Assembly (NCBI GenBank): GCA_016490735.1
Contig: JAEMWC010001606.1
Location: 36,001-100,000 of the forward strand
Origin: Pachyseris speciosa
Lineage: Eukaryota; Cnidaria; Anthozoa; Scleractinia; Pachyseridae
Length of the DNA: 64,000 nucleotides
Direction: 5' to 3'
The notes under the pieces were generated by a model. It was not told the DNA's origin and made no database searches. It saw only the letters and a list, made by a program, of their open reading frames with translations. Positions 4,990-56,394 of the stretch are shown one piece after another. The position numbers were made by a program, and so were the translations under genes. Position 1 is the stretch's first letter. Each line of letters begins with the position of its first letter.

Positions 4990-7900
4990 TAATAATATAA
5001 TGTTATGACGTACATTGTTAGTAGCAATATTGTTACAAGTTACCTTTCATTATCCCAAAAGGAGTAACTCAAGTCAATGACATTTAAACCCCCCAAGCAT
5101 TTTATTTCGTTTGCTTGTTTCAAAATATACACCTAAGTGGAGAGAGATACAATGTACGGTACCTGTTTCCAGTAAAACAACAGGATTGTGGAGATCAATC
5201 ATATGCGATTCTTAAAAGCAAGTTTTTCTTGACCTTTAGTGTCAAAAAATCTCTAGAGAATCAACTTGTTTTTCAAACAGATGCATTGGATGCTTTGCCA
5301 TCTGCAACAAACTCAAGCACAGATTTGCCTGGGACACCTGCTGACTCCAATCAAGCTACCAAACCTACCTCCTCACTGCCAGGTTCTGAGTCGCAAATTC
5401 AAGGTACTGTGTGGCTATGTGATAATCATCATAATCATTATTGTTTGACAGCTTTCCTTTCAGAGGTCACAATTTAGGATTTCATCCACAGACCCAAAAG
5501 TTAGAACCACCTTGTAAAACTTTTAAAAAAGCACCACAGGAAAGTACTCGGCTGCTTAACAGCTTTTATTTGAATGGTGATGCTGTGGGATTTCATCCAC
5601 ATACTCAAAAGATAGAACCACCTTGTAAAACTTAATAAACAGCACCACAGGAAAGTACTCAGCTGCTTGGTAGCTTTCATTTCAATGGTCATACTGTGGG
5701 ATTTTATCCCCAGACTCAAATGTTTGAACCACCATGTACTATCAGTATACATGTAATAAACAGCATCACAGGCATCACTATTGTTTTTAGTCTATATAAA
5801 CGACCTCCCTGCGTGCCCCCTATACTCTGTGCCAAGAATGTACGCTGACGATACAAGTCTTACTTTAAGTTCAAATAATCCAGCTGACTTACAATACAAA
5901 TTAAATAGTGACTTAGCCGAAATTAAGACCTGGCTACAAGCTAATAAACTTAGTCTAAATGTCAAAAAAACCAAATATTCCATTATTGGTAGCCATAACA
6001 AATTGGCTAACTTAAACTATCAGTTTGATGTAAAAATCGATGAACATTGTTTAGAAAGAGCTAAAACCTACAAGTATCTTGGTATTGATTTGGATGAGAA
6101 CTTATCTTGGGACTCCCACATTGACAACATTGTCAAAAAAGTATCTGCCAGCCTCGGGGCTATCAGACGTGTTAGAAACTTGGATACCTCACAAATTAAT
6201 GTGATTTGGTAAACTGAAGCCACTCTAAAGGCACTAAGGCCACATGTTAGCGGGCATTCAGGGGTAATGCCGCTACCATGTGGCCTAAGTGCCTTTAGAG
6301 TGGCTTCAGCTTACCAAATCACATTAATTTGTGAGGTATCCTTGTCACTTCAGCCACATCCCACAAGCTTTATGTTTTCACTGCGTGTTAGAAACTTGGT
6401 TCCCAGTGAGACTCTTATTATGATTTATAAAGCTCTCATCCAACTGTACTTTGATTACTGTAGCTCTGTATGGGGCAGCATAGGTGTGTGTCAATCTGAG
6501 AGACCCCAAAAACTACAAAATAGGGCTGCACGTTTAATCACTTTCTCTGACTTAAATATTAGATCGTCCACTTTACTCAGTGACCTCGGTTGGGATTCCC
6601 TGGAGTGAAGGCGTTCTAAGCAACTAGCAATCATTTTGTTTAAGATTCTCCATAATCTTGCTCCGACTCGTTTAAACAGTCTTTTAAAAACTACATCCAG
6701 TGTTCACTCACATAATCTAAGAAATTCAAAATACAACCTTTTCGTTCCTAGACCGAGTACTGAAGCAGGCAAATGAAGTTTTCAATATCGTGGCTCTGTT
6801 CTCTGGAACAGCTTGCCTTTGAGGGCTAAGATTCAGCCAACTATTAGTTCCTTTAAGTCATGCATTTAATTAATATTGATAAGTAGCCATAAGTAATAAA
6901 GAGTATTTATAGCCTTGTAATAGCTATAGCCTATGTAATAGCCTTGTACAGACAATAAACTTAGTTAGATAATTTAATTGGTTATTAAGTAATTAATTAA
7001 TAGAGACCTTAAGATACCCCGATTCTGGTGTATGGGTACGGGTAAATTACTGGTAGCCGTACACGTGAAAAGTGACGGGAACATCGGCTTAAGTTACCCG
7101 GACTAAACAAAGAAGGACTGAAATCATAACTTATTCCCGTTTAGTGAACATGGCGGCTGCCAAGGTTAGGTTTGTAGTCACAATGTTTTATCAGTATCTG
7201 TTCGGCTTTTCTTCAATTTGCTCAGTGTTTTTTTTTCCGCTTAACAAGGTTCCAAATATTTTGTTCCTTGCTTTCAGAAAAGTACGTAGACGAAATGTTG
7301 CTGCTTTATGCCCGTGATAGTAACGATCAGCTCAAAATTCCTGGAAACTGTCCTTTCGAAACATATTTTCCTTTATTTTGACTAGATAAGCTTAAAGGTT
7401 CACAAAAGTGGCTGGTACAATTTTGTCTTCGAAAAGATTTTCTACCACGAACATGTCTCCGCCATTTGTCGCTTCCAATGCTTAATCAGCTGGTTTTTGG
7501 TCAAATGTTTCATGTTAATTAGACTTTACCTGGTACAAACACAAATTAGACAGCACAGTTGACTTACATTTTTGTTCATTTCACGTAAAACATCGTTCGC
7601 TTGTCCTTTACAACTTACCCGTAAGTAAACACGAGTAGAATGCCACGTACCCCAGATAAACGGCTAGGCTACCGGGTAGTGAGATGATGCCATTACCAAA
7701 TATGGTCAAACATGGTGCCCTACCTGTACCCGTACACCGGAATCGGGGTATCTTAAGTTCTCTAATTGTTTTTAAAACATGGCTCGATGGAAGAGCATGT
7801 AAATGAATTGATACCGTGTATAAATAAAGTTTTACTACTACTACTACTACAGGAAAGCTTAGCTCAGTAGCTTTCATTTGAATGACTACGGAACTTAAAC

Positions 7901-17104: not shown

Positions 17105-17559
17105 AAAAGACATATTAGAAATGTATCTGCTTCCATGTTTTCAGCTCGGTACCTTGCTTTGTTTTGAAAATAGAGCAGTTTGAATTTTATAGTTTTTCAC
17201 AGTGTGTGACAACAGATGTCTTCTCACTAACCTGCGATCAGGCGTTCTTTTTCTTTTGTACGGGGGAGGGAGAAAAAGAACGCCTGATACAATAGCGACG
17301 CGCACTAATGACGTCACAAAATTGGAGCCCCCTGGGTGACCCAGACAAACAAATCGCTTTTCTGTAAGAGTGTGAGTTGAAATTATGTCATTCGCGAGCA
17401 GTTCTCTTTCCTCTTTAAAAACGTAAAGCTTGTGGGATGTGGCTGGAGTGACAAGGATACTTCACAAATTAATGTGATCAAGTAAGCTGATGCCACTCAA
17501 AAGGCACTAAGGCCACAAGGTAGCGGGCATTACCCCTTAAATCTACCAAAGCAAAGATT

Positions 17560-17640
17560 GAGCCCAAGCATTAGCAGCCATGGACAGCTGTTTCGGCCTT
17601 GTTAGGCCTCATCAGCATGGCATAGCTAATGCTCAGGCTC
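17560..17640 (-). ncRNA. type I hammerhead ribozyme
   Basis: Read on the minus strand: CTGATGA (complement of 17609-17615), stem II GGCC with loop TAACAA and GGCC, then GAAA, the short stem III CAGCTG and the cleavage triplet GTC. Stem I pairs GCCATG with CATGGC, then, after a small internal loop, GCATTAGC with GCTAATGC, then GAGCC with GGCTC. All core positions of the hammerhead are present. Confidence 0.9.
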
Positions 17641-17831
17641 AAGTACCCACATATCAATAAAACAAGCAATGAAAACGTAAAGCTTGTGGGATGTGGCTGG
17701 AGTGACAAGGATACTTCACAAATTAATGTGATCAAGTAAGCTGAAGCCACTCAAAAGGCACTAAGGCCACTCCAGCCACATCCCACAAGCTTTACGTTTT
17801 CATTGCTTGTTTTATTGATATGTGGGTACTT

Positions 17832-17912
17832 GAGCCTGAGCATTAGCTATGCCATGCTGATGAGGCCTAACAAGGCCGAAACAGCTGTCCATGGCTGCTA
17901 ATGCTTGGGCTC
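17832..17912 (+). ncRNA. type I hammerhead ribozyme
   Basis: CTGATGA at 17857-17863. Stem II pairs 17864-17867 with 17874-17877, with loop TAACAA (extendable to a fifth U-A pair). GAAA is at 17878-17881. Stem III is only three pairs (ACA/UGU, including the A15.1-U16.1 pair) with a two-base loop. GTC is at 17887-17889, with predicted cleavage after 17889. Stem I pairs 17851-17856 with 17890-17895 and 17840-17847 with 17897-17904, then 17832-17836 with 17908-17912. The stem I internal loop (TAT/T) faces the stem II loop, as in active natural type I ribozymes. A very short stem III is typical of metazoan hammerheads that work best as dimers. Confidence 0.92.
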
Positions 17913-18085
17913 AATCTTTGCTTTGGTAGATTTTAGGGGTAATGCCCGCTACCTTGTGGCCTTAGTGCCTTTTGAGTGGCTTCAGCTTACTTGATCACAT
18001 TAATTTGTGAAGTATCCTTGTCACTCCAGCCACATCCCACAAGCTTTACGTTTTCATTGCTTGTTTTATTGATATGTGGGTACTT

Positions 18086-18166
18086 GAGCATGAGCATTAG
18101 CTATGCCATGCTGATGAGGCATAACAAGGCCGAAACAGCTGTCCATGGCTGCTAATGCTTGGGCTC
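18086..18166 (+). ncRNA. type I hammerhead ribozyme, stem II variant
   Basis: Same fold 254 bp downstream: CTGATGA at 18111-18117, GAAA at 18132-18135, GTC at 18141-18143. Stem II reads GGCA-TAACAA-GGCC, so the fourth pair is lost and three remain. The outer stem I has GAGCATGAGC in place of GAGCCTGAGC. The core is intact. Confidence 0.85.
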
Positions 18167-18284
18167 AATCTTTGCTTTGGTAGATTTAAGGGTAATGCCC
18201 GCTACCTTGTGGCCTTAGTGCCTTTTGAGTGGCTTCAGCTTACTTGATCACATTAATTTGTGAAGTATCCTCTTTCCTCTTTAA

Positions 18285-20513
18285 CCGTTCTGACTGAAGA
18301 TGACGTTGTTCCCTTCTCCAGATTTTGAAGAGAACCAGAAGACAACGCCGTGGGGCAGTTAAAACGGTGGTTGAAGTGCCGGAGTTTCAAATTGAGTGGA
18401 AAATGCGATGAACTTGTGTCCGACTGCATCAGAGAATGAAAGAGTGGACATCACCACACGCTTGATCCGAGTATTAAAGGAACCTCCTGAGTTTGGATAA
18501 CTGCGGAAAAATGGCATTTTGCATGTCTCTAAATGTTAAGCTTACATAAATCAGCTGAATGAACGCAGTGAAAATTTTGAGCACATATGATTGTTCGATT
18601 TTCCTTTCTGGTAACAGATAAATACATGTAGTCTCTATCTTATCGAAAACTCACTTGTTCGACCAGTTTTTGCATTTTCCATTGCAGAAGAATCCTTAGA
18701 AGTCCAATAGTTGATGGTATGCAAAGGGCAAACGTGGTCGAGAAAATTAAGCAGAATTTATTTGTGTGATCTTCGCAACGAAGTGCTCCATAAGAGCTGG
18801 AATCCGCCCCGGCGATATTATCGTAGCACAGACTACTCACAACTCTGGGAGCATTGCGAACAAGCCCCGAGAGACTTGCTCGCAGGCTACCTTCGCTGTC
18901 GACCGTTATAGATTTTCCTAACACGTTAGTTGGTATAGATTCAGCAAAATTCTTGTCGATTAGGTTTTCTATCTTTGCCAGTGGCTCTAGACACGCGCAT
19001 TGTTTGGTGTGAGATTTGCTCAGTGGATCGGAAAATTTAGTAGTGGGACCGTTTTCTCTGGGCCAGTGAAGGGAACAAAGAGAAGCTTATGCTTCTGGCA
19101 CAAATGTTTGTATTTCTGGCCGGGAGATGTTTCTCTCTGTAAAGAATTTCCGTGAACAAGCTATTAACCAAGGTTCGCACTTCCCAATATGTTGCGAAGA
19201 TTTTGGGAATGGAATAAATACACAGATTCTTGTCAATCTGAGGGATTTTTGGCATTTTTTTGGATACCTCCAGTCCGTTTTTGCACTCACACAAACAGCA
19301 GTGTTTGGTGCTAACCATTTATCGCCCTTCTGGAAAGCTAATACCACAATCTTACCGATTCTTTCGTGTTTTTGTTCGAAAATTATCACTACATTTTCCT
19401 TTAGCAAACTGCAATGTTTGTCTGAGTCACGGCGGGGGACTAAAGTGACAAAATCTATTTATAGTAATAGTGCGCGTCGCTATTACTGCACGAGTCGCTT
19501 GCCGCCCCTCGGTTGTTTACCTGTCAACAGCGATGTTATCTTGTGTCATACGATAAATGTCAGACAATCAGATTTTACCGGAAATCCATGCGGTAATCGC
19601 GGCAAGGAAAAGCACTGCTACTTTTTTGAATAATGCTTAACCATTGGTGTGTTTTCTCTGTTGAAAACGTCAAGAAACAAATAAAATACTAAAAAAAATC
19701 TGCCGGTGGAACATCAGAATCCTTTATTTTATCGTAAAGCGATCAAAAGTGTGGGAATGAAACTTTGATTCTGCAGCAGCACGTCTTGCAACAAGTGCAC
19801 CATGAATATTAATTGATCGTCAATTGTTGTACATAGTACTTCCACGATTTGATTTTCCGATTTCTCTGTGAACCCTGACTCCTCAATCGCGGCAGCACAA
19901 TCCGCGCTTCTTTTGATTTCCGACTTCTTGGTTCCATATATATTCCATGGGACTCACCACAACTACCGTAAAGATGTTTTGGAATCAGTAGAACGATGCA
20001 TTTTTTTTTTCACCGCTTTCGGAACAACTAGTAAATAACTCTCCCTCCAAATCCTGTGGAAAGTACGGCTGCAACGTCTTCTTTTAAGCATAAGATCCTT
20101 GGGATGCATTCCATAGGCTCTTCCTTCAAGGATTTGTGAATAAACTTTTGAAGAGAGTAAGTTATAGCTGCATAAGATTCGCCTCGGCAGCCGACGTAAC
20201 GGCTCACTTGTGTTGAGTTTGCACCGGAAGTCACATATGTAAATCAAGTAACCAATCAGAACGGGACTCAAAAGACTCTTTTGTTCTACGACCAATCAGA
20301 CAAAACTCCAGATTCTGGCTTTTTTACAAGTGATCTCGTAAAGAAATGTATCATGCCCTCCTCCCTTCGGCGACATGTAGAGAATATAGGGAGAGGACAT
20401 GATTTCAGGCTAGGATGAGGGGGGGGGGGGGGGGGGCACTGCCTTATATGTGCTATATGGGTATGTGCGGCCCCAAATAGTATGTTTTTTAGCCGTTTTG
20501 GTCTGAAATAGGG
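18285..20513. other. mostly unassigned sequence with a minus-strand reading frame
   Basis: Apart from the minus-strand frame at 18640-19460 described separately, I see no gene or shared repeat. A G-run lies at 20420-20435. A GGTCTGAAATAGGGTAT repeat starts near 20500 and continues at 22780 beyond hammerhead multimer B. Confidence 0.4.
18640..19460 (-). pseudogene. possible broken reading frame with one membrane-like segment
   Basis: Read on the minus strand, one frame runs from about 19460 to the stop at 18640 with a single in-frame TAA near 19086. The upstream part (LLKENVVIIFEQ, FQKGDKWLAPNTAVC) and the downstream part (CLEPLAKIENLID, SLSGLVRNAPRVVSSLC) share the frame. Near the C-terminal end a hydrophobic stretch, FCLIFSTTFALCIPSTIGLL, looks like a transmembrane segment followed by basic residues. 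A TATAAATAG word lies on the minus strand at the upstream edge (about 19455). I do not recognise the family. It may be an exon with an overlooked splice, a pseudogene, or chance. Confidence 0.3.
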
Positions 20514-20671
20514 TATCAATTTTGAAATGAAATCGTAAAGCTTGTGGGATGTGGCTGGAGTGACAAGGATACTTCACAAATTAATGTGATCAAGTAAGCT
20601 GAAGCCACTCAAAAGGCACTAAGGCCACAAGGTAGCGGGCATTACCCCTTAAATCTACCAAAGCAAAGATT

Positions 20672-20752
20672 GAGCCCAAGCATTAGCAGCCATGGACAGC
20701 TGTTTCGGCCTTGTTAGGCCTCATCAGCATGGCATAGCTAATGCTCAGGCTC
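20672..20752 (-). ncRNA. type I hammerhead ribozyme
   Basis: Same as 17560-17640 in all core positions: on the minus strand CTGATGA, GGCC-TAACAA-GGCC, GAAA, CAGCTGTC and the three-part stem I. A further half ribozyme (3' strand of stem I plus the start of stem III) lies at about 20926-20954, where the arm inverts. Confidence 0.9.
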
Positions 20753-21175
20753 AAGTACCCACATATCAATAAAACAAGCAATGAAATCGTAAAGCTTGTG
20801 GGATGTGGCTGGAGTGACAAGGATACTTCACAAATTAATGTGATCAAGTAAGCTGAAGCCACTCAAAAGGCACTAAGGCCACAAGGTAGCGGGCATTACC
20901 CCTTAAATCTACCAAAGCAAAGATTGAGCCCAAGCATTAGCAGCCATGGACAGCTTGGTAGATTTAAGGGGTAATGCCCGCTACCTTGTGGCCTTAGTGC
21001 CTTTTGAGTGGCTTCAGCTTACTTGATCACATTAATTTGTGAAGTATCCTTGTCACTCCAGCCACATCCCACAAGCTTTACGATTTCATTGCTTGTTTTA
21101 TTGATATGTGGGTACTTGAGCCTGAGCATTAGCTATGCCATGCTGATGAGACCTAACAAGGCCGAAACAGCTGTC

Positions 21176-22615
21176 GACGTCTTATAATTGGCTGTTTTTT
21201 GTTATTTTTGGATGCAAGTCCTAAGTACCCGCCGGGGGGAACGGCAATGCATCCATCCCAAAACGTTTTGCAGTGTCCAAGTAGTGCCGTAGTTCTCTTC
21301 CCTGAGGAAATCTACAAATCTGTTGGTTCGTCTGTGGTGCTACCACAATTGTTGCAAGCTGTGCCTGTAGAAAAGCTATGTGCTGTCCAGTTCCTGCGCA
21401 ATGGTGCGGTTCGTCTGTCCTTCGAACAGACCGCTAACTGTGATGATCTTGTTCTCCGTGGTGTCATGTACGGTGACACACCCTTACGTGTTGTCAGTGC
21501 TGATAAAAAGTCCCGCCTCGTGTATCTTCGGGATTGCCCGTCTGAGGTTTCTGACGATGCTGTGTCTCAGTTCTTCTCCACGTACGGGGAGGTGCTTTCT
21601 GTTCAAAGATCCAAGCATGCCGCCTTTCCCGTTCTCCTTGATGGGAACCGCGTGGTGAGAATGTCCTTGTCTCGAGACATCCCGTCTACTGTTAACGTCG
21701 CTGGCTTCGACTGCCGCGTGTGGTACGCTCGCCAGCCTCCGCAGTGCTCGATTTGTAGGAAGTCTGACCATCGAAACCGTGATTGCCCGCTTTCTGGTCT
21801 GTGTAGACGCTGTCGCCAACCTGGTCATCTTGCCAAGGAGTGTAAGCAGGCTTGGGGTTCAACCCGTTCCGCTGATTCTTCTCTGGAGGTTCCCCCAGAT
21901 GAACGTAAGGAAGTTCTTGTTTCTGGTTCTGTCGATCTTATAGATGAAAGCCCGGATTTTGTTCCCTCTGCGGATGAGGCTTCTTTCGATGAATGTGAAA
22001 TGGCTTCGGGGATGAGGAGGTTGTTGCCCAGGCTGAACCCTCTCCTCCTCCACGTCGTCCAAGTATTACAGCTTCTTCGTGTTTTTCTGTTGGTGTTTCT
22101 ACTTCTGTTGATGTTCCTGATGCTGGCGTTACTTCTGATGTTGCTCCTGGTGATATTCCTGACCCTTCCATTGCTGATTTTTCCGCTGCTGCTGTTGTAA
22201 CTTCTGAGTCTGTGGTCGCCGAGCCTCCGGTTGTTCCTGTCCCTAAGCCATCGCCGTCTATTTTCGTCCGTCTGAAAGCTGCTGCTGTTAAGGATATTCT
22301 CCTCCGCAAAACGCTTGAGCGTTATGGACATGTTATTACGGAGAAGCTTTTAATGCGTATTCCTCAGGATGTCCCTTTTGCTTCCGGTCAATATCTGGCT
22401 CATTTGACTACTCTTGCTGATGAGAGACTTGCTTATTTAAAGCGTATCGAGAAGAAATTTAAAGCTAATTCTACTAAGAGATGAACCTTGCCGTGTTTTT
22501 TCTTTGATATGGGTTGACTGATTGATGTATTTTTGAATTTTGCGTGCGGCTTTGTTTTCTTGTCTTTGTTTGTATTTTAATGTGTTTTTATCTGTGAATA
22601 AATTTTCTTATACAA
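21176..22615 (+). mobile_element. 1440-bp ORF1-only LINE-like element
   Basis: Bounded by a 14-bp target-site duplication (CCGAAACAGCTGTC). It contains one gag-like frame and a short 3' region ending GAATAAATTTTCTTATACAA, but no endonuclease or reverse transcriptase. This is the layout of a 'half LINE', comparable to HAL1 elements in mammals, which carry only ORF1. It must borrow the reverse transcriptase of another LINE. The 5' end starts about 70 bp before the first in-frame ATG. Confidence 0.75.
21249..22484 (+). pseudogene. LINE ORF1 (gag-like) with two CCHC zinc knuckles, one frameshift
   Basis: The first in-frame ATG is at 21249. An N-terminal part with an RRM-like pattern (LRNGAVRLSFEQTANCDD, then LVYLRDCPSEVSDDAVSQFF and GEVLSVQRS) is followed by two zinc knuckles: CSICRKSDHRNRDC and CRRCRQPGHLAKEC (about 21748-21845). 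After an acidic linker the frame shifts by one base around 21996-22025. The original frame then gives only a Leu-rich artefact to 22200. The shifted frame continues with PSPPPRRPSITAS, a Val/Pro/Ser-rich stretch and a charged C-terminus (LTTLADERLAYLKRIEKKF) to the stop at 22484. RRM plus CCHC is typical of ORF1 nucleic-acid chaperones in several LINE clades. Confidence 0.75.
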
Positions 22616-22770
22616 CCGAAACAGCTGTCCATGGCTGCTAATGCTTGGGCTCAATCTTTGCTTTGGTAGATTTAAGGGGTAATGCCCGCTACCTTGTGGC
22701 CTTAGTGCCTTTTGAGTGGCTTCAGCTTACTTGATCACATTAATTTGTGAAGTATCCTTATCAATTTTGA

Positions 22771-23238
22771 ACATTTTGGTCTGAAATAGGGTATGGTTTG
22801 TGCACTCTTGTCTTGAATTCGGTATGTTTTTTAGAAGAAGCTACTTCTTCATCTTTAGCCGATAAGACCATCAACAAAAGCCCTTCTTTTTAGTCTTTTA
22901 ATTATTTTTACGTCCACGGTGTACGTGAAATAGGTCTGAAATAAGGTATCAAATTTTTGGTCAGGTCTGAAATAGGGTAAGGGTTTCAGGAAGCGGGCCG
23001 CACACCCCCAACCAATTTTTCTGGGAGTACCCCCCCGGGTGTGCTTGCTAAAGGCTCCGTGAAGGCAAAATTAGGCTAATTTAGCAACAGAACGGGAACG
23101 TCATTTGAGGACGCGAGAACGCGCGGAAAGGACTGAACACAACTTCCGGTGCTCAATTTGCTGCTCTGCCATTGGTCAAGTCGGGTTTTAGATCTGCGCG
23201 CGCCGTTGTCAAGAAGTTCCCGTTGTCTTTGCTAAATC
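22771..23238. repeat. degenerate GGTCTGAAATAGGGTA repeats, then unassigned sequence
   Basis: The word GGTCTGAAATAGGGTA occurs near 20500, 22780 and 22965, with a variant (GGTCTGAAATAAGGTA) near 22932. It belongs to the sequence into which multimer B was inserted. The stretch 23040-23235 holds nothing I recognise. Confidence 0.5.
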
Positions 23239-23622
23239 AAGGATACTTCACAAATTAATGTGATCAAGTAAGCTGAAGCCACTCTAAAGGGCACTAAGGC
23301 CACAAGGTAGCGGGCATTACCCCTTAAATCTACCAAAACAAAGATTGAGCCCAAGCATTAGCAGCCATGGACAGCTGTTTCGGCATTGTTAGGCCTCATC
23401 AGCATGGCATAGCTAATGCTCAGGCTCAAGAACCCACATATCAATAAAACAAGCAATGAAATCGTAAAACTTGTGGGATGTGGCTGGAGTGACAAGGATA
23501 CTTCACAAATTAATGTGATCAAGTAAGCTGAAGCCACTCTAAAGGGCACTAAGGCCACAAGGTAGCGGGCATTACCCCTTAAATCTACTGGTAGATTTAA
23601 GGGGTAATGCCCGCTACCTTGA
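23239..23622 (-). mobile_element. hammerhead-ribozyme retroelement, copy D, truncated
   Basis: On the minus strand it ends at the family's common 3' end (plus-strand left edge AAGGATACTTCACAAATT). It contains one whole monomer and part of a second, then inverts at about 23588 (AAATCTACTGGTAGATTT) and stops at CCCGCTACCTTG. No clear target-site duplication. Its right edge abuts the broken coding frame at 23627. Confidence 0.8.
23347..23427 (-). ncRNA. type I hammerhead ribozyme, stem II variant
   Basis: On the minus strand: CTGATGA, stem II GGCC-TAACAA-TGCC (three pairs plus one mismatch), GAAA, CAGCTGTC, and the full stem I. The core is intact. Confidence 0.85.
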
Positions 23623-25610: not shown

Positions 25611-25708
25611 CTAGCCTCCCATGCAGTCGTTTTTAGGGGACTCGTATTTCACCTCCTCCCCAGGAGGTGAAATACGAGTCCCCTAAAAACGACTGCGTGG
25701 GAGGCTAG
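25611..25708. mobile_element. 98-bp perfect-looking hairpin MITE
   Basis: CTAGCCTCCCA at left and TGGGAGGCTAG at right. Pairing continues to the centre at CACCTCCTCCCCAGGAGGTG with few mismatches. The CTAGCCTCC-type end also occurs at 28252-28311. Confidence 0.8.
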
Positions 25709-25842
25709 GTTTTTCAGAATTTTTAAAACTGATCAAGAAGAGCAAAAATAAACTGAAATTAAGCAAAGTCCCATTTAGTCAGAAATTAGTCATAACCAAC
25801 CATCTCCTATTCAGATTTTATACAGTGAGTAGCTAACCATGA

Positions 25843-25870
25843 CTGATGAACGGGTTATTCCCGAAACGTC
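25843..25870 (+). ncRNA. hammerhead-like core, different family
   Basis: CTGATGA, then AC, GGG-TTATT-CCC as stem II, GAAA, and CGTC with a stem III of two pairs and no loop. Stem I partners are weak (TAAC..TGA against TGACTGTTA). The motif is followed by GTGTAATAAATGAG. It resembles the minimal hammerheads reported in Penelope-like elements, but no Penelope coding sequence is next to it. Confidence 0.45.
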
Positions 25871-27133: not shown

Positions 27134-27225
27134 TCTCCAGTAGCTCAGTGGTTAGAGCGTCCGTCTAGATCGCGGAGGGTCGTGGGTTCAAATCCCATCT
27201 GGAACTCGGATTTTTTTTCCGAGTT
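27134..27225 (+). tRNA. tRNA-like Pol III unit, anticodon-position AGA, probably pseudogene
   Basis: The cloverleaf is recognisable. The D-arm is GCTCAGTGGTTAGAGC. The anticodon arm is TCCGT-CTAGATC-GCGGA (AGA at positions 34-36). There is a 5-base variable loop, and the T-arm is GTGGG-TTCAAAT-CCCAT. The acceptor pairs 5 of 7 (TCTCCAG with CTGGAAC). A T8 run at 27210-27217 could end Pol III transcription. An AGA anticodon means Ser, but tRNA-Ser has a long variable arm, which is absent here. A tRNA-derived repeat or pseudogene is therefore more likely than a working tRNA. Confidence 0.5.
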
Positions 27226-29511: not shown

Positions 29512-29895
29512 CCCCGGCTACACGTTGTAACATTGTTAGAAGAACACGTCCCAACGTTGTTGTAAGAACGCTTTTAACAATGTTGGATACGCATATAACA
29601 TTGTTGGAAACACGTCGCTTCGGGAGTCTGACTTCAACAATTTTCACCTCTGCTATTAGACTCTCGGATTGGACACTGAGCCCTTAACTCTAAATGGTCT
29701 TTGCAATACAACATTGTTGAAAGGGCGGCTACACGCCTCAACATTTGTTGTATGTTGGATAAAATGTTTGATCGAAATCAAAACATTCTTCCAACAAAAA
29801 ATGTTGAACAAACGTCATCAAACATGCATGCTACACGTTCTAACATTGTTCATCCAACAAATGTTTTATAACAATGTTTGAACGTGTAGCCGGGG
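29512..29895. mobile_element. MITE with CCCCGGCTACACGTT ends
   Basis: CCCCGGCTACACGTT at left and AACGTGTAGCCGGGG at right. The interior is rich in AACATTGTT words in both directions. The equivalent copy is at 32819-33180, which lacks about 25 bp near its left end. Confidence 0.8.
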
Positions 29896-30439
29896 CTTTA
29901 GAACGGCTTGTTTCGCTTCAATGATGAAACAGGTGAAATATTCGGCCTCTGAAGCGTCGCCTTATCGTAGACTGTTGACAACACCGTGCTTTACAGACTG
30001 ATTGTGATTTGAGTTTATAATTTCTTCAATATGAAAAACAACAACAACAACAAGCAAAAGAAAACAAACCAACGGTGTACCGTCGCTGTTCATGTTTGTT
30101 CATAGTGGGTCCGCCATCTTGAATCCGCTTGCCCTTGAAGAGAGGCCCTGGGGACAACACGGCTGTCACATGAAAGAATGCAAAATAGTGGGTGTATGTC
30201 GCATAATAATTACTCGGGATACTGTAAGTATACCGAGTTATAAAATGTGTCAGATTTCAGTCTTTTTTTTTTTTTTTTCTGTGCAGCAAAATGCACAATA
30301 CAATTACGTTCCGGTGTTTGGATTGGCCAATGCACAATAGCAGGCACGTGGCGGTGTGTTTATTGGTTAAAGCAAACCACATAGTCCAAAGGTCGAAAGG
30401 CTAACATCACGCGACGGTTGTTTACAAGTTATGCAAATT

Positions 30440-31353: not shown

Positions 31354-34300
31354 GATTGGCTGGAGTAATTGCTTTGGTTTTGGTTTTACGACACTCAATT
31401 GAAAACTGCTATAATGCAAATTCTCTCTTTTGTTTCAGTAAACCAATATGGCTGGGGGTCACGTGAGCGAACACTCCCTGCATGTGCTAGTGAAGCGATC
31501 AATATACGAAGTGCCCATTCTTGATTCTCGTCTGCCGTCTGCGTTGGATTATATTTAGCCTACTTCGCAGACGCTTCTGCGTGACTTGCCAAAAGAGCGT
31601 CTGCGAAGGAGGCTAGATGATATTCAGTGTGAAAATGACTTTTTCTCGTTTCACTGTATATTATATAAAATATCACATTGCAATTCTTAATTCATTTTCT
31701 ATGGCACATTTGTACTTAAACGCGCCTTCGCTCATGTGCGATATGTGGATAAATAAAATTACTTACTTTACTTACTTACTTAGTAAGCAGAGAACAGTGA
31801 TGACGGTAGTATTAACGATACGATTATTTTAACGGGCTCTACCTCGGTGTAAAAACCTGTGAAACTCACGAATGACGTAGCGAACTCGTTCGATCTTCGG
31901 AGAAGGCAAATTCTTTACTTATGTGTCCGAGTTTTAATCAGATATAGAATTTCAGGAACTGATACACCAGAGAGATAAACTTAGCTTTCTACACTGTGAT
32001 ATGAGGCCTTCCAAGGGGTGGTCTGGTGTCTGGTGTCGCTTTGTCGCTCGTTCATAACTCTCGGTATGTCGCTTGTTTCGTTAGGGACAGATGTAGCTGT
32101 CGCATAGAAAACAAAGAGGAATGGAAAGTGAATTGTCACTGTCGCGTTTTTTCTGTCATTTCTGTTGGTTGTCGTTGGTTATATGGAGGATTGTCGCCTG
32201 TTTTCAGAACCATGTCGCTTGTAGCTTCTACCCCTTGGAAGGCCTCTGATATGACAGAAGCAAAATTGCAAAAAACAAACTTCACAAAGAAGATCAGACG
32301 CTACAAAGTCTAATTTTCACAGTTTTACTCACATGGAAGCCAATAACCTGAATAACATTCGAGTCTTGAAATTGAGACATCTGCTTCTGTCGCTAAGTAA
32401 TAAAACCATTTACTTTACTGCGCTTCTCAATTAGAAAATCGCACAAAATTCTAATCTATATTAATTTTTTTAATAACTTTAAGTTTAGAGCGACTAAAAT
32501 ATCACCGTAAACCGGGATCAGCCTATAAAACGACAATCCTGATGTAATTCCATCATCCACCAAGATCCCTGCCAAATTTTAGCGGAATCGAGCATCAAAA
32601 TACAGCAATTTGAACTGGCTTGAAAATGGAACACCTACCCCGAAGATTTGCCTCAGCAATTTATTCATCGGCAAGTGTCCTGTGCGACCTTAACACAGAC
32701 GAAAACAAAATCTTCCAATCAGTTTCTTCCTGGCCATTTTGCGAACTTCATTTGGAAACCGTTTGATTCAATAGTTCACTAAGGACAAGGAATAAAATCA
32801 ATTATCTTATTATCTTAAGCCCCGGCTACACGTCCCAACGTTGTTGTAAGAACGCTTTTAACAATGTTGGATACGCATATAACATTGTTGGAAACACGTC
32901 GCTTCGGGAGTCTGACTTCAACAATTTTCACCTCTGCTATTAGACTCTCGGATTGGACACTGAGCCCTTAACTCTAAATGGTCTTTGCAATACAACGTTG
33001 TTGAAAGGGCGGCTACACGCCTCAACATTTGTTGTATGTTGGATAAAATGTTTGATCGAAATCAAAACATTCTTCCAACAAAAAATGTTGAACAAACGTC
33101 ATCAAACATGCATGCTACACGTTCTAACATTGTTCATCCAACAAATGTTTTATAACAATGTTTGAACGTGTAGCCGGGGCTTTAGAACGGCTTGTTTCGC
33201 TTCAATGATGAAACAGGTGAAATATTCGGCCTCTGAAGCGTCGCCTTATCGTAGACTGTTGACAACACCGTGCTTTACAGACTGATTGTGATTTGAGTTT
33301 ATAATTTCTTCAATATGAAAAACAACAACAACAACAACAACAAGCAAAAAACAAACCAACGGTGTACCGTCGCTGCTCATGTTTGTTCATAGTGGGTCCG
33401 CCATCTTGAATCCGCTTGCCCTTGAAGAGAGGCCCTGGGGACAACACGGCTGTCACATGAAAGAATGCAAAATAGTGGGTGTATGTCAGATTTCAGTCTT
33501 TTTTTTTTTTTTTTTTTTTCTGTGCAGCAAAATGCACAATACAATTACGTTCCGGTGTTTGGATTGGCCAATGCACAATAGCAGGCACGTGGCGGTGTGT
33601 TTATTGGTTAAAGCAAACCACATAGTCCAAAGGTCGAAAGGCTAACATCACGCGACGGTTGTTTACAAGTTATGCAAATTCATCGTGTCTGAGTTGTGAA
33701 GCTAGATATTTTAAGACAGCACAGTCTGTCCCCGTGAAAAGGTTTGCCGAGTGTTAAGAAAAAGTTGGAGGCCTCGCACGTGTAATCGATATCACAAGTC
33801 GAAATCGAATGCTGTGACAGAAAAATTACAGATTTGCACAAAGTTGTTTTCGTAATGTGATACCTTCCATTTAATACGTGACCCCAAGTGAACACTCAAG
33901 GTTAAATAATCCACTTCGACCGCGGAACAAATTTCCTGCATATATCTTTGTAAAGTTGTGAAACTGGATTTTAATACAGTACAGACTGTCCGTGTGAAAA
34001 GGTTTGCCGAATTTAAGACAAGGTTGGAAGCCTCGCACGTGCTGTGAGTATCGACTCGAATTAGAACGTTGTGACAGTTCTATATTTAGATAATCGCAAA
34101 GTTGTTTTGATGTAATTTGATCCGGATTATACCACAACTCAATCGCTGTGACAGATCTATATTTAGAGACAAGTTTGCGAATTTTTGGTTTTCACGTGCG
34201 TCATAAAAAAAAACTAAAATTAAACATTTCGATTTTTTACCTTCATCAGGTAAATGACATACGATTTGCCTTGTGTTTTCAAGTTTGTTTTCAAGCTTCG

Positions 34301-39300: not shown

Positions 39301-42300
39301 CTTGAAATTTTGAAAAAACTGGCAAGTTTTTTCAAATTTCAATCCATTTCCATCCTCGTCATCTTAGATGGAATACAGAAGTTTATAGTGTCAATGCAGT
39401 ACTGCAGTCTTTGGCAACAAAACTAGACCATTATTTTAAGGTTTCCATTGATGCATAGGCCGTTTTAAGCTTTTTAAAGTGATGGTACAATAGCGTGACA
39501 CTGCCCCTTTAAGAGGAATCCACTCTTGAAAACCAGCAAATTTTTACAAATACAAAGTGAGTTAAAGAGGTGAAAGAAATGTGTCCACACACTGCAAAGT
39601 ACTTTATGGGCTCCCGATGAACACACTTCGATTTTGAGAAAATCCATACCCTTTGTTCTTCTCTTGCGTTTCTGCGGGTAAACAGCCCCTTCAAAAGGTA
39701 TTGGGTACAGTGATATACCCTTATCCTTGTTTGACCTGCTGTTGTTAACCAAAAACAATGCATTTATCTAAAATGTTCATCCTTGAAACCGAAGCAATGA
39801 CAGTTCTGATCAATGGCCTGGAATGACGTTACAAATTATACTATTCCCAGACCTTTTTTTACTGATTCTGCAGCTTGGTTGTGTTTCCTGCTCTTTTGGT
39901 TTTATCCAAAATGAAAAAAATTTGTTTCTCATATATAGATAAATATTTGTTTAAACCAAAAACATTTTTGGGGATTATAGGCACTTTAAGTTACAGCATA
40001 TTATTTCTTAGCGTTGTTTTGTATTATGTTGTTAATTTTAATAAACTTGAACTTGAACTTGAACTTGAGAGTTGTCATTCTCAGTTTCCATTGTGAAACG
40101 GACAAACAACTACTAAAGAACCTGAACCCGGAATTAAATCTACTGTGGTTCTGCCATACGTCAAAGGCATATCGGAGGCTCTTTGCCTCAATTCCCTTCC
40201 TTGATATGTTGATCATCAAGGATTCGAATGGATACCTCTCTACCAGTGTTTACAGAAAGCCTACACACACTGACCAGTACCTAGCGTATGATTCACACCA
40301 CCCACAATCTGTAAAACGCGGTATTGTCAAGTGCCTGTACGATCGATCTAAACACCTCATAACAAAACCATCAGTTATCTCTCATGAAAAGAAACACCTC
40401 TCCGGTCCTCGTTTCCAACAGTTATCCGTTTTCGTTTGTAAAAAATCTTACGAAAACCAAGGGACGAACAACCACTAAAGAACCTGAACCCGGAATTAAA
40501 TCTACTGTGGTTCTGCCATACGTCAAAGGCAAATTGGAGGCTCTTCGCCGTTGCTTATAACAACAAGGCATACAGACTGTTTTCAGATCTGACACAACTC
40601 TTAGATCACACCTAGTGTGACCTAAGGACATTGTTGATCCAGTAAAACAAGACAGAATAGTCTACAAGATTCCCTGCGAATGTGGTAAGGTTTATATTGG
40701 AGAGACGTGAAGATCTATGCGTGAACAGATTGAGGAACACGATAGAGACATACGGCTTGCTCGGATCCAATCCTCCTCCGTTTCAGAACATAGCAATACG
40801 ACCGGACATTATCCGCTCTGGAATGAAGTTAAATTTATTGACCGAGACCCACATTGGTACACCCGAAGGGTTAAAGAGGCTATTCACATAAGACTTCACC
40901 CTAACAACATTAACAGGGACAGTGGAATTGAAATTCCTGAAGCGTGGATGCCCATGATCAAACAACACAACAGCCAATCAGTACCAAAGCGGACCACTGA
41001 GGGAACAATTTCTAGTTTGAACGACAAAGATTGAAATTCTCCAATCAACAACAGCCTAAGCGAGGATCAAAACGTACCAATCATGACCAGCCATGGTGCT
41101 TCTTATTCTCAAACGCAATCAGTCGACGCCATCGTCTGATGAAGACCAGCAGAATAGCGGTCGAAGCATCGCGATCTGCATCTTTGTGACTCAATTGTGA
41201 GACAAAAGATTAACTCAGCTATCATATTATTTCTTGTTGATCGCGATACACGAAAATGAACATTTTTGTCAATTATGTGAAAAATTTAGTCCATAATTAT
41301 GAAAATACCTGTGATAAAAACAGCTCTTGCAGTTTTAATACATTTTGGAGCTTTGGGCAACAAACAAAGGTTCGAAAAATAAACAACTGCCATCTTGGGT
41401 CAATCACATGCTCAGAGAGTTCTCCTGGTTACCAAGCATACAACAATGCTGTTCCATTCAAACAATCAATACGGTGATTTGTTTTCGATGAACATCGACT
41501 TGTTGAGGCTATTACCAGCTTTACGAGAGCTAGAAATAATTGAAGACTAAGAGCAAAGAAGAGGATGAGCAGCCAGAGGTTTAAAAGCTGTGAAAGGTCA
41601 AAACTTTGACACTGTTTTTTTTGCGTGAAGATACAGTACTTGAAGATACAGTACTTGGTTATAAGATGCACCCTGAAATTAGAACAGTTTTAGAGCAACC
41701 AAGAAAAATCTTTTGACAAATGCTGCACCTTATAACTGAAAAAAAATATGGTACTTGACATCCTGTGTACTTTGCTGGAGAGACTATTCTTACCCTTTTG
41801 CATTGTTCAGTTGAGTTTCTTTGTTGTTTGAATCAGAAATATGTGGTTTCAACAAAATATTCCTACCTCCCCAATGTAAGGTCACTGAAATAAGTGTCAA
41901 AGTTTTGAAAAGAAAGTAGGAAAGAAATTTTGGAATTTTCTTTGGGGCTGATGGTTGTTTTCTGGATGCGTAAGAACTCTTTTAATTCTTTCAACTCCAC
42001 AGTTAATTAATTTAATTCGGTTGTTGTCTCCTAAAGCATTTGTATATTTCAGGACTATGCAAAAAGCACCATGAATGAATTGCTGGGAATGTTTGGTTAT
42101 GAAGGAGAAATCACACGTGAAGCTGTTGAGGAGCTTCAGATTAGGCTACTTCCAGAGGAAGATGACAATGCCCAGTCAACAATTGATAAATCTGGGGAGA
42201 AGGGTGTTCCTTTACTGTTAACATCAACGCTGGTGAAAACTCAGTTTTGGTTCAAATCCCTGGTAAGTGGCATTTTAGGATGCTTTTCATCAGCAGTTCT

Positions 42301-45300
42301 TGAGGTTTCATTAAAGTACGCCAAACACCAAAAATTTTTTTCGCTAAAATAAAACCACATAAATAGACCGCAATAAATATACAGCCAGAAGTCAGGCTAT
42401 TTGCTGGGTGCTGGAACTCCCTCTTCAAACCTTTAAATCTTTGCACCTGTCACAACAACATTTCGCCTTTATTTCCAGTTTTGGACATTTTTATGGGCTT
42501 CAAACATACAAAAAATGAAGCATCATTTGGTACAGACCAAGTCAGAAGGAGCTTGGGTCTATTCTCAATTTGATGTCACAAACTGCTTTGCATGCATGTT
42601 TTCAAAGACTTAAAGCAATGTAAATCAGTTTGTGACGTCAAATCGAGAATAGACCCAAGCCTCTCCTGACCTGGTTGTGGGACAGACGATGGCGAGATTT
42701 TACAACTTTTAAACAGCCCATGAAAACTGGTGAAGATTCGGTAAAAAAGGCACAATGTGTTTCAAACAGGTGCAAAGATTTATTTTAGTGAAAAATAAAA
42801 TTAAGTGTTAAGTGCACTTTAAGTTTTTAGGTAGAATGGTGAATAGGAGGGTATATGGATTTGTACCCCTCAACAAGTTATTTCATGTAGACTGGGTTTC
42901 CATCTCCCCCAATGCATGTACCATGTTCACAGTTTATGGATGGCATTGTCCTGTTCCTAGTTTCTGATAAAACCCTGAGTTAATTGGGCTTCCAAACATT
43001 TTATCCATCAGAGTCTGCTTACTCAGGCAGACTCTTTGCTGCCACTCGCAGAGTTGCTAGGATCTCACAGGTCATGTACTGATGTTCAGAATACACAGTC
43101 AAAATGTATATTGTAGGGCTTTCACAAAAGATTGTAACCCATTATACACATCAAATTATTGCTGAACAGGCTTTATATGACTTGAATGTTGAAGGTTACC
43201 TTGAAACCCAAGATGGTAGTGCTCTCACTGGTGGTTTTGTTGTGCAAGGTGTACCATGTAACTGAAATCTTTACCAGTCATATACACTGTACTCTATGGT
43301 TTTTCGTTGGAAGCAGCTACATGTACTTTTCAGTGGATGATAAAAAAACGACTTTGTTTAACAAGGTGACACTTAACAGTTATTCAACTGTCAAACCTGT
43401 GGCCCTCGAAATAATTCCGGATCAAATTGGAATTCAGAATGTAGGTTTTTTAGGAGAGGGGAAAACAGAAGTACCCAGAGAAAAACCTCTTGGAGCAGAG
43501 TAGAGAACCAACAACAAACTCAACCCATGCTGCATTGATGGGATGCAAGTGCTCTCACCACTATGCCATCCCTGCTCCCCTAAATACAATTCTTAGAAGC
43601 CCAGTGATAATGATGGAAATGCCTGTGTTCAGTGAGGTGTCTGATATCCTGCGGGATATCATAAGGAGTTGCACCACTGCTTGGTGTCTAGCAGATATTG
43701 CAAGCAGTTTTCCAATGTTGTTTGTTCTTTATTTAAGGTATAGAGAATGCAAGTAATCCAACTGTCATACCCATGCCAGATGTGAATGATGCAGTAAGTA
43801 CATATATTTCTAATTCACGGTATGCATTTTATATTTATACAAAATCTTCATCTTAAATATAAATAGTGTTATCAAAAAGACATTGCTCAGTTACTACAGT
43901 ACTGCTTAAAATTAAGTTACCTGTCGCATCGCGTTTCCTGCGCTATGCGATTAGTGTAGCGCGAGTCACTAAAGCAGAAATTTTTGGTATAAATTTTGGA
44001 TGATTTTGCAACGTGACATCAATTAAGTTCACAAAACACTTTCCAAATGCAGCTATTGTTCTGCCAAATTTGAGTCGTTCATATGTGTAGTTCACTTCTG
44101 TGCAAATAACAGGGTTCGCACACACCTTGAAATTCCTTGAAAGTGCTTGAATTTGAAAATCAAAATTCAAGGCCTTGAAAGTCAGTGAAAAGTACATTGG
44201 GTCCTTGAAAAACCTTGAAATTTGCTGTTTTACTGTTTCCACTTAATGGAAGAACTAGCAAAGACTTAGACTTGAACAAATCTGGCAGTTATCCCTTAAA
44301 CCTGATCGTCTAGTATCACATTCTAAAGGCATTTTTTTTACTACATGGAGTGCTTGAAAAATTTTTTTTGTGCCCTGGAATGTCCTTCAAAAGTCCTTGA
44401 ATTTTTAGTCCAACAAAGAGTACAAACCCTGAAATAAATATAACATCATTGAGTTCATTACAAATCAAAAACTTGTAAACAAACCGATGAATGATGAATT
44501 ACGAATGATAAGCATAATTCGTCACTCCCGCTTAAGCACTGAATTTAGTTGAATTTTTATCGGTTCTGTCGTCGATATGTTTAAATGGTTGTGTTTTCTA
44601 TATTCGTCGAGGGCATAATCAAGAGCTAGTTCGGCACAAGCAAATGGCTAATGACCGGCCGGGTTACTGCGTATGCATTTTGCTTTCAGATCGCAAATTT
44701 GCATAAAACTGCAAAAACTGCTGTCTGCATAATTTGAAACCTTCCACTCAACGTGACCGAAAAATTCATGAGACGCCAAGGAATCGAACCTGAAACAGAA
44801 TGGAATTAATTTTATTTCCTTCTTTGTGCACGAAAAATTTTATCATGTAGAAATCTGAAGTTCATTCTGGCAATGGTGAAGACGCATAAGTTTGGGTAGT
44901 TGTATGTGAAATGTTTGTTTATTCAACACGCCGGCGCTCAATCGTATATTTTCTACTTTGAAAGACTGGAACACATTTACCTGGCTATATCTTCGTAAAC
45001 TTGTGCAGATTTTAATCCAGTAGAGTTTGTCCGTGCAAAAAAGATTTGCCGAAGAGCAATTCGGAAGCCTCGCACGTACTCTGCTTAATTACACCGGTCG
45101 AAGTTCAATGAACTTATTTATGGCTCGATCTGTTTTTAATTTGCCACTTCAAACTCTGTGCCAACTTGCCAACATTTTCAATTTTTTAATGGCTAGTTAT
45201 CAAGGATCAGATGAATAGAAAGCTAACAAAAAGTATCAAGCATCAGTCATGGCTTATGGACGAGCTGAAAAATTGGCGGTTTGATGTACAGTGTAGGAAG

Positions 45301-55574: not shown

Positions 55575-55795
55575 GAGGTCAAGATGGAGCCATCTTGACT
55601 GCTTGGGATAGCCTGTTCGTCCCTTGTTTTACTGTCTTTTAATAGTGACGTTTGAGTCTTAATAAATCCTTTATTGGCCAAGCTTGTTCGGTCAAGATGC
55701 TGGGATATTGGCCTCGTTCTTTTTTTGCATGTTATGGTCCTCGGTGCATACACGTACAAAAAAGAACTTGGCCAATATCCCGCCATCTTGACCTC
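55575..55795. mobile_element. MITE with GAGGTCAAGATGG ends
   Basis: GAGGTCAAGATGG at left and CCATCTTGACCTC at right. The right half contains a second hairpin (GGGATATTGGCC facing GGCCAATATCCC). Confidence 0.75.
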
Positions 55796-56394
55796 ACACA
55801 TGGCCAATAACCCATATATACCCAGTATAGAACCAAACGAATATGCCCTAGGTTAACAAGTTTTTCTTATGCTCTTGTCTTTCTCTTTGACAATTTCCAT
55901 GAGCGACTATGTTCAGTGATCATCTTCATGTATAAGTCTCCTCTGAGTGAACTTGTTTCTTAATTCCATGTATGGATCCTAATGATAAAGTCAACTGTAT
56001 TTGATAAGATTTGGTTCAGTTTGTGGGAAAAAAAGCAAATTATGACAGACTAACTGCATACCTTTTCTTGAGAGATTCCAGTAAGAATACTCTGGAGATC
56101 TCAGTTTTAGACCCAAAGGTACAAAATAAGTTCTGGAGTTCTATAGAGGGGTTTAGGGTCCACTGGGAAAGTGGAACCACAGAATTCTTGTTTGGTACTT
56201 TTTTTTATGTTTTTCCTTAAGGTTAAGTTAGTTGAAGTTGTAGGTAAATAACTTGTTATCATGTAAAAATGTTGATTTGAACAGGAAACACTGGTAAATA
56301 CAGTTGTCTATCATTTGCACTCTGATGATGTAGCAGAGGGAATTTCTCTTTACAAAATATTGAAACTACCACATTGAAAATGTTGTAAAACAAT

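What the first reader, a model, noticed from the sequence alone, without database searches (positions are those of the whole stretch)
17419..23622. Cluster of retrozyme-like elements carrying complete type I hammerhead ribozymes
Five full hammerhead motifs (17560-17640 minus, 17832-17912 plus, 18086-18166 plus, 20672-20752 minus, 23347-23427 minus) and one split copy (21118-22651) share every core base: CTGATGA, GAAA and a GTC triplet. They have a 4-5-bp stem II with a TAACAA loop and a long stem I with an internal loop. Monomers are 254 bp and encode no protein. Seen directly: sequence, pairing, spacing. Known: type I hammerheads in tandem 170-400-bp units define retrozymes, whose circular RNAs occur in plants and some animals. 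Inferred: this is such an element, probably transcribed and self-cleaved.
Basis: partly seen in the sequence, partly recalled or inferred. Interest (0 to 1): 0.92.

Follow-up and report, generated by a model that had tools for sequence, protein, structure and literature searches.

The report
Ribozyme repeat inserted by Penelope machinery
This genome carries a 254-letter repeat with a predicted self-cutting RNA motif (a hammerhead ribozyme), often inserted as mirror-image pairs whose outer ends fall at two fixed points about 40 letters apart, a layout it shares with the genome's own Penelope elements, so Penelope enzymes are the likely movers of this parasite, a question that has been open for such repeats in animals.

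Summary
In detail: six hammerhead cores lie at the stated places, none expected by chance, in a 254-bp non-coding unit: a metazoan-type retrozyme, a known kind. The 'cluster' is three insertions, with a fourth at 6184-6383, all head-to-head inverted. In the window's own genome, ends at which reverse transcription (RT) would begin fall at two points of the unit, S1 (about p128) and S2 (about p168): windows noted before the other loci were fetched caught 43 of 65 such ends (4.6 expected). Of 24 inverted insertions 20 have one end of each kind, none two of one kind, and 19 of the 20 have target-site duplications. The genome's Penelope-like elements (PLEs) end at two points 33 nt apart, never the same one twice in six inverted copies: the published PLE 'tail', the stretch between two RT start sites (PMC11167929). 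Most likely PLE enzyme cuts both strands and primes each at a different site of the retrozyme RNA, probably a circle. Against: no significant sequence similarity between PLE and retrozyme sites. Cleavage, circularity and transcription are untested.

The parts
17404..17418 (.). Insertion A, left target-site duplication CTCTTTCCTCTTTAA
17419..17770 (-). Insertion A, minus arm, p165 (S2) down to p67
17768..18269 (+). Insertion A, plus arm, p133 to about p127 (S1), nearly two units; 3-bp overlap with the minus arm
18270..18284 (.). Insertion A, right target-site duplication
17583..17615 (-). Hammerhead core copy 1, intact stem II
17857..17889 (+). Hammerhead core copy 2, intact stem II; predicted cleavage after 17889 (p254)
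18111..18143 (+). Hammerhead core copy 3, one stem II mismatch
20514..20526 (.). Insertion B, left target-site duplication TATCAATTTTGAA
20527..20955 (-). Insertion B, minus arm, p169 (S2) down to p248
20695..20727 (-). Hammerhead core copy 4, intact stem II
20955..21175 (+). Insertion B, plus arm, first part (p34 to p254)
21143..21175 (+). Hammerhead core copy 5 (split copy), one stem II mismatch
21176..22615 (+). Later retroposon with a CCHC (zinc knuckle) ORF, inserted into B; duplication CCGAAACAGCTGTC at 21162-21175 and 22616-22629
22616..22758 (+). Insertion B, plus arm, last part, ending at about p128 (S1)
22759..22771 (.). Insertion B, right target-site duplication
23238..23588 (-). 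Insertion C, minus arm, p131 (S1) down to p37
23370..23402 (-). Hammerhead core copy 6, one stem II mismatch
23589..23621 (+). Insertion C, plus arm, p35 to p67; no duplication found, outer end not at S2
6168..6183 (.). Insertion D, left target-site duplication CGTGTTAGAAACTTGG, within a LINE RT frame
6184..6383 (.). Insertion D: minus arm p128 (S1) to p52, plus arm p43 to about p172 (S2); no ribozyme
6384..6399 (.). Insertion D, right target-site duplication
40471..41225 (+). Remnant of the resident Penelope-like element, 3' part with degenerate minimal hammerhead at 41136, ending at the PLE's first site (t55); a further 79-bp piece at 40109-40187

Best explanation
This is a family of 254-bp non-coding repeats with predicted type I hammerhead ribozymes (a metazoan-type retrozyme) that is likely moved by the enzyme of Penelope-like elements, which would cut both target strands and copy the repeat's probably circular RNA from two fixed start points about 40 nt apart, one for each strand. 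Shown by sequence: RT-start ends at S1 (about p128) and S2 (about p168); one end of each kind in 20 of 24 inverted insertions; duplications of 11-20 bp; copying through the ribozyme cleavage junction into repeated units; the same two-end rule in the PLE of the same genome. Inferred: transcripts self-cleave after p254 and a host ligase closes the circle; PLE protein recognises the AC-rich stretch between S1 and S2; the two cDNAs run round the circle and their free ends are joined, giving head-to-head inverted multimers.
For: Pre-noted windows catch 43 of 65 RT-start ends (4.6 expected, P 9e-34) against 4 of 62 opposite ends. 20 of 24 inverted insertions are S1/S2 and 0 are S1/S1 or S2/S2; 19 of the 20 have a duplication score above 8, the largest of 344 mismatched flank pairs. 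53 of 62 runs that start at S1 or S2 pass the cleavage junction, 1 stops at it. The two arms of one insertion are closer to each other (2.1%) than arms of different insertions (3.8%; 0 of 5000 permutations). 27 of 33 PLE ends fall at t54-61 or t86-87, 33 nt apart, and six inverted PLE pairs never use the same site twice. A purified anole PLE protein cuts and extends both strands and starts RT at two adjacent sites that bound the 30-40-bp tail, in an AC-rich stem-loop (PMC11167929, parts 1-3 of 4). The richest AC 30-nt window of the retrozyme circle begins at p133.
Against: The PLE and retrozyme sites share no significant sequence similarity (Smith-Waterman 12, shuffles mean 14.0, 480 of 500 at least as good; fixed-window ranks also unremarkable). 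The in vitro study saw no difference in start site between strands, whereas pairing is strict here. 4 of 24 inverted insertions have one end elsewhere; 16 of 19 single-orientation insertions lack a duplication. An uncleaved multimeric RNA would also explain reading through the junction. Greater likeness of the two arms could also come from gene conversion within an inverted repeat. No expression or enzyme data.
Confidence: 0.84

Rival explanations
1. A LINE moves the retrozyme by ordinary target-primed RT with twin priming; the fixed ends are favoured annealing spots on the RNA.
For: LINEs are present in the window (57718-62051); twin priming and long duplications are known for LINEs (recalled); short matches between target and RNA are seen at several junctions.
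Against: Two fixed internal sites, one per strand, in 20 of 24 inverted insertions, with no poly(A) or fixed RNA 3' end; the resident PLE shows the same two-end rule.
Confidence: 0.1
2. The insertions are fold-back DNA elements or products of DNA recombination, not reverse transcripts.
For: Long inverted repeats with flanking duplications and long direct arrays (L038, L045, L047).
Against: The outer ends are two different sequences about 40 nt apart on the unit, inner ends are scattered, and most single-orientation copies also start at S1 or S2.
Confidence: 0.03
3. The template is a linear multimeric transcript and the hammerhead plays no part in transposition.
For: Published PLE insertion in vitro does not need hammerhead cleavage (PMC11167929). 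53 of 62 runs pass the cleavage junction.
Against: Units of one insertion share variants (0.916 against 0.686, 0 of 2000 permutations), though overall distance within (4.9%) and between (5.5%) insertions is close; coral retrozyme RNA is circular in vivo (PMC7229834). One run stops at p1 and one starts at p254 (L010, L021), as cleaved linear RNA would give.
Confidence: 0.3

Closest known systems
Metazoan non-LTR retrozymes (Acropora millepora, Mytilus, axolotl; Cervera and de la Pena 2020, PMC7229834)
   Same: Type I hammerhead, 170-400-nt non-coding units, tandem copies, GC under 50%, duplications longer than 4 bp; PLEs already proposed there as strong candidates for mobilisation
   Different: Unit of 254 bp rather than about 225 and 245 in A. 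millepora; inverted insertions with two fixed, paired ends are not described in the parts read (1-4 of 6; supplement not available)
Penelope-like elements with GIY-YIG endonuclease, and their tail (PMC11167929; PMC3846280 passages)
   Same: Hammerhead upstream of two RT start sites 30-40 nt apart; inverted copies, target-site duplications, tail on one of the inverted ends
   Different: The retrozyme encodes no protein; its hammerhead has a 2-bp stem III and a long stem I; spacing 40 rather than 33 nt; no significant sequence similarity at the sites
Plant LTR retrozymes
   Same: Non-autonomous repeats with hammerheads and circular RNA
   Different: Type III hammerheads, LTRs, tRNA primer site, 4-bp duplications, Gypsy-type machinery (PMC7229834, and PMC7761336 and PMC11722881 passages)

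Membership tests
Metazoan non-LTR retrozyme | Type I hammerhead with intact core | tested here: met
   Six cores in the window; 38 of 53 full units keep the core. Rfam score 33.9, 0.1 below the cut-off; 0 of 20 loci reach it
Metazoan non-LTR retrozyme | Non-coding unit of 170-400 bp with GC under 50% | tested here: met
   254 bp, 45% GC, longest ATG frame 36 codons
Metazoan non-LTR retrozyme | Tandem copies dispersed in the genome | tested here: met
   At least 114 matches; arrays up to about ten units, cut by the fetched stretch (L047)
Metazoan non-LTR retrozyme | Target-site duplications longer than the 4 bp of plant LTR retrozymes | tested here: met
   11-20 bp, median 15, in 19 insertions
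Metazoan non-LTR retrozyme | Helix I-helix II loop contacts of canonical type I hammerheads | not tested
   Internal loop and TAACAA loop are present; contacts not modelled
Metazoan non-LTR retrozyme | Self-cleavage and unit-length circular RNA | not testable with these tools
   Needs RNA
Penelope-like element (as an autonomous element) | ORF with RT and GIY-YIG endonuclease | tested here: not met
   No ORF above 36 codons; it works like a PLE substrate and is not a PLE
PLE-type integration (mechanism) | Two RT start sites 30-40 nt apart downstream of a hammerhead | tested here: met
   S1 and S2, median 40 nt apart, range 32-48 in 19 insertions
PLE-type integration (mechanism) | Inverted copies with the tail on one end and target-site duplications | tested here: met
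   20 of 24
PLE-type integration (mechanism) | Recognition sequence shared with the resident PLE | tested here: inconclusive
   No significant similarity to the one PLE family compared; other PLE families not examined

The most novel reading that the evidence does not exclude
Every intact insertion of this retrozyme is one double-ended event: a PLE enzyme, probably a dimer, makes a staggered break and extends both DNA strands on the same RNA circle, one strand always from S1 and the other always from S2. The PLE tail is then simply the distance between the two start sites, one per strand, and retrozymes are minimal PLE substrates that reveal how PLEs integrate.
Probability: 0.55. Interest if true: 0.82.

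Novelty: new member of a known kind. Interest (0 to 1): 0.68.

Why it matters
Which machinery moves animal retrozymes has been left open. The 2020 description proposes PLEs as strong candidates from co-occurrence (PMC7229834); a 2020 review says the repeats show no conserved motif that would point to a partner (PMC7761336, passage); a 2024 review still lists LINEs or PLEs (PMC11722881, passage). The two-site, paired-end signature found here points to PLEs and gives RNA positions that can be tested with a published PLE assay. It also suggests why PLEs have a tail. I saw no description of fixed, paired retrozyme ends in what I read after the searches; most of those papers I saw as listings only, and subscription papers and supplements were not available.

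Tried and rejected
Sequence homology between the PLE two-site module and the retrozyme: not significant. Rfam at gathering level: no hammerhead in the window or in 20 loci. Exact 33-mer scan of viral contigs: none. Organism from the ORF at 48676: 27 protein hits, the only named one Nematostella vectensis at 42%, so a cnidarian is likely but not shown. Pfam on three PLE pieces: no PLE, RT or endonuclease family, two weak irrelevant matches; the PLE identity rests on my reading of the protein letters, the hammerhead and the ends. PDB search of the endonuclease piece: one match at E 0.068, not used. Other type I hammerheads of this genome (63 matches above the Rfam cut-off, 74 of 127,828 candidates scored): two loci fetched (CTGACGAGTCCCAATAAGGACGAAACAGCTGTC), about 85% alike, too few and too diverged to place ends. 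Covariation: two pairs with a two-sided change, each in one of 53 units; 1386 of 1430 cells paired; too little to count as proof. The microRNA matches are the fold-back arms, all below their cut-offs.

Errors mended: one search had the outer stem one base out of register, replaced. One search was a script error, replaced. In one search my pattern found no hammerhead in L048-L059; the BLAST covers that region instead.

Dropped or hand-set rows: L038, L045 and L047 run off the fetched stretch and were left out of the insertion tables. L010 and L044 (gaps inside) and window B (later insert) were joined by hand as one insertion each. The wide site windows (S1 from 124 or 125 to 137, S2 from 162 or 163 to 183) were set after seeing the ends; one search uses the windows noted. 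In L047 the p254 start is the end of the ten-unit query, not a real end; it counts as a miss. L049 was dropped as the same place as L066; L056 and L066 have identical flanks and may be one insertion duplicated. L023 was left out of the spacing list and L018 out of the duplication lengths; both lists were typed from earlier output. The PLE query stops at site 2, so ends at t87 rest on the differing flanks printed.
Full report
1. Observation. The stretch 17832-17912 is far more stable than its shuffles (z -7.0), and the circle of one unit folds at -89.7 kcal/mol against -64.8 +/- 4.7 for 300 shuffles. Rfam's type I model scores two copies at 33.9 bits, 0.1 under its cut-off. Stem II has one mismatch in three of the six window copies (letters). 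Of 53 full units from 26 loci, 38 keep the core and 33 of these also all four stem II pairs. I number the unit from the first base after the predicted cleavage site (p1 = 17890), so cleavage falls after p254.

2. Architecture in the window. Insertions A, B and D are flanked by 15-, 13- and 16-bp direct repeats; none was found for C. Each of the four is a minus-strand arm followed by a plus-strand arm. D lies in the RT frame of a LINE, and its joined flanks read through the site in one frame. From these four I noted that one outer end lay at p127-131 and the other at p164-176 (C: p67).

3. Test in the genome. The window lies in an unnamed 984-Mb assembly; a search with one unit gave 114 matches, 40 of 251 candidates scored, so a lower bound. 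I fetched 39 loci and mapped every segment onto the unit. In these later loci 43 of 65 ends at which RT would begin fall in the windows noted before (18 of 254 positions; 4.6 expected; P 9e-34), against 4 of 62 opposite ends. Of the 22 misses, nine lie at p126 or p132-137 and three at p178-182; some of these are chance matches with the flank, the other ten are elsewhere. Of 24 insertions with opposed arms, 20 have one end at each site, 3 have S1 plus another point, 1 has S2 plus another point, and none has two of the same (wider windows, three insertions joined by hand). Of the 20, 19 have a duplication score above 8, the largest value among 344 mismatched flank pairs; the twentieth (L018) scores 8. 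The other four have no duplication. Of 19 single-orientation insertions 3 have one. The 19 duplications run 11-20 bp, median 15, 66% A+T.

4. Template. Of 74 cDNA runs, 62 start at S1 or S2; 53 of these extend beyond the cleavage junction, one stops at it (L010, p1) and eight stop before it. One further arm starts exactly at p254 (L021), as priming at a cleaved 3' end would give. The usual template was therefore a circle or an uncleaved multimer. Units of one insertion agree at eight variant positions more than permuted units do (0.916 against 0.686; 0 of 2000), although overall divergence within (4.9%) and between (5.5%) insertions is close. The two arms of an insertion resemble each other more than arms of different insertions do (2.1% against 3.8%; 0 of 5000; 22 insertions with at least 60 shared positions); gene conversion could add to that.

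5. The PLE of the same genome. The window holds a PLE remnant (40109-40187 and 40471-41225). Its endonuclease fragment had 3,516 first-look candidates, of which 150 were scored and listed. A minimal hammerhead, CTGATGAAGACCAGCAGTATAGCGGTCGAAACGTC or close to it, sits at the ORF's stop codon in 8 of 12 larger loci by strict pattern. In those loci, eleven and the window, the element ends at two points, 54 and 87 nt after the cleavage site: of 33 ends, 14 at t54-61, 13 at t86-87, 6 elsewhere. Six inverted pairs: L063, L067, L068 and L070 have one end of each kind; L058 has t54 and t80; L052 has t55 and t68; none has the same site twice. Duplication scores are 14, 13 and 12 in L067, L068 and L070, 9 in L052, 5 in L058 and L063.

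6. Link to published PLE work. Frangieh et al. 2024 (PMC11167929, parts 1-3 of 4 read) report that an anole PLE protein cuts and extends both strands, starts RT at two adjacent internal sites in an AC-rich stem-loop, and that the stretch between them is the genomic tail of 30-40 bp. On their printed template the start at ORF 111-118 lies 82-89 nt after the hammerhead cut by my count. The 2013 rotifer PLE paper (PMC3846280, passages) describes inverted pLTRs, duplications and a 31-bp tail optionally on one of them. The retrozyme shows the same plan: two sites a median of 40 nt apart (range 32-48 in 19 insertions), downstream of a hammerhead, bounding an AC-rich stretch (the richest 30-nt window begins at p133; the 41-nt stretch ranks 7th of 254), with S2 in the loop of a predicted hairpin.

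7. What does not fit or is missing. Sequences at the PLE sites and at S1 and S2 are not significantly alike. The in vitro work saw no difference in start site between strands, whereas here the pairing is strict. Only one PLE family was examined, and Pfam did not recognise its pieces. No expression or biochemistry was possible. The animal is unnamed, probably a cnidarian (one named hit, Nematostella, among 27). Sixty-three type I hammerheads above the Rfam cut-off lie elsewhere in this genome, none within the loci used here; whether those families obey the same rule is open.

8. Verdict. As an object this is a new member of a known kind, the metazoan retrozyme. The point of interest is the insertion rule, which points to PLE machinery and turns a question left open in print into a defined biochemical test.

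Noticed in passing
window 21162-22629: The CCHC-ORF retroposon that splits insertion B has a 14-bp duplication ending exactly at the predicted hammerhead cleavage base (21175); this may be coincidence.
   Followed up: partly
window 25843-25870: CTGATGAACGGGTTATTCCCGAAACGTC, resembling the minimal hammerheads of PLEs, away from any recognised PLE.
   Followed up: no
window 29568-30366 and 32852-33607: The same tandem repeats and hairpin matches recur about 3.24-3.28 kb apart, which suggests a direct duplication.
   Followed up: no
window 42533-42679, 55685-55862 and about 25640-25720: Long hairpins that match microRNA models below cut-off (first two) or are visible in the sequence (third), possibly fold-back elements.
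   Followed up: no
window 57718-62051: LINE with endonuclease and RT frames (Pfam Exo_endo_phos and RVT_1).
   Followed up: no
window 27136-27203: The only Rfam match at gathering level in the window, a tRNA.
   Followed up: no
L069 6878-7884: Tandem PLE 3' pieces ending at t38-45 with a different downstream sequence, perhaps another PLE subfamily with its own sites.
   Followed up: no
L072, L073: A second type I hammerhead family in this genome (CTGACGAGTCCCAATAAGGACGAAACAGCTGTC), with short direct repeats at spacings of 276 and 337 bp.
   Followed up: partly
L038, L045, L047: Long single-orientation arrays (1.6-2.5 kb or more, running off the fetched stretch): many turns of one circle, or later tandem expansion.
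   Followed up: no
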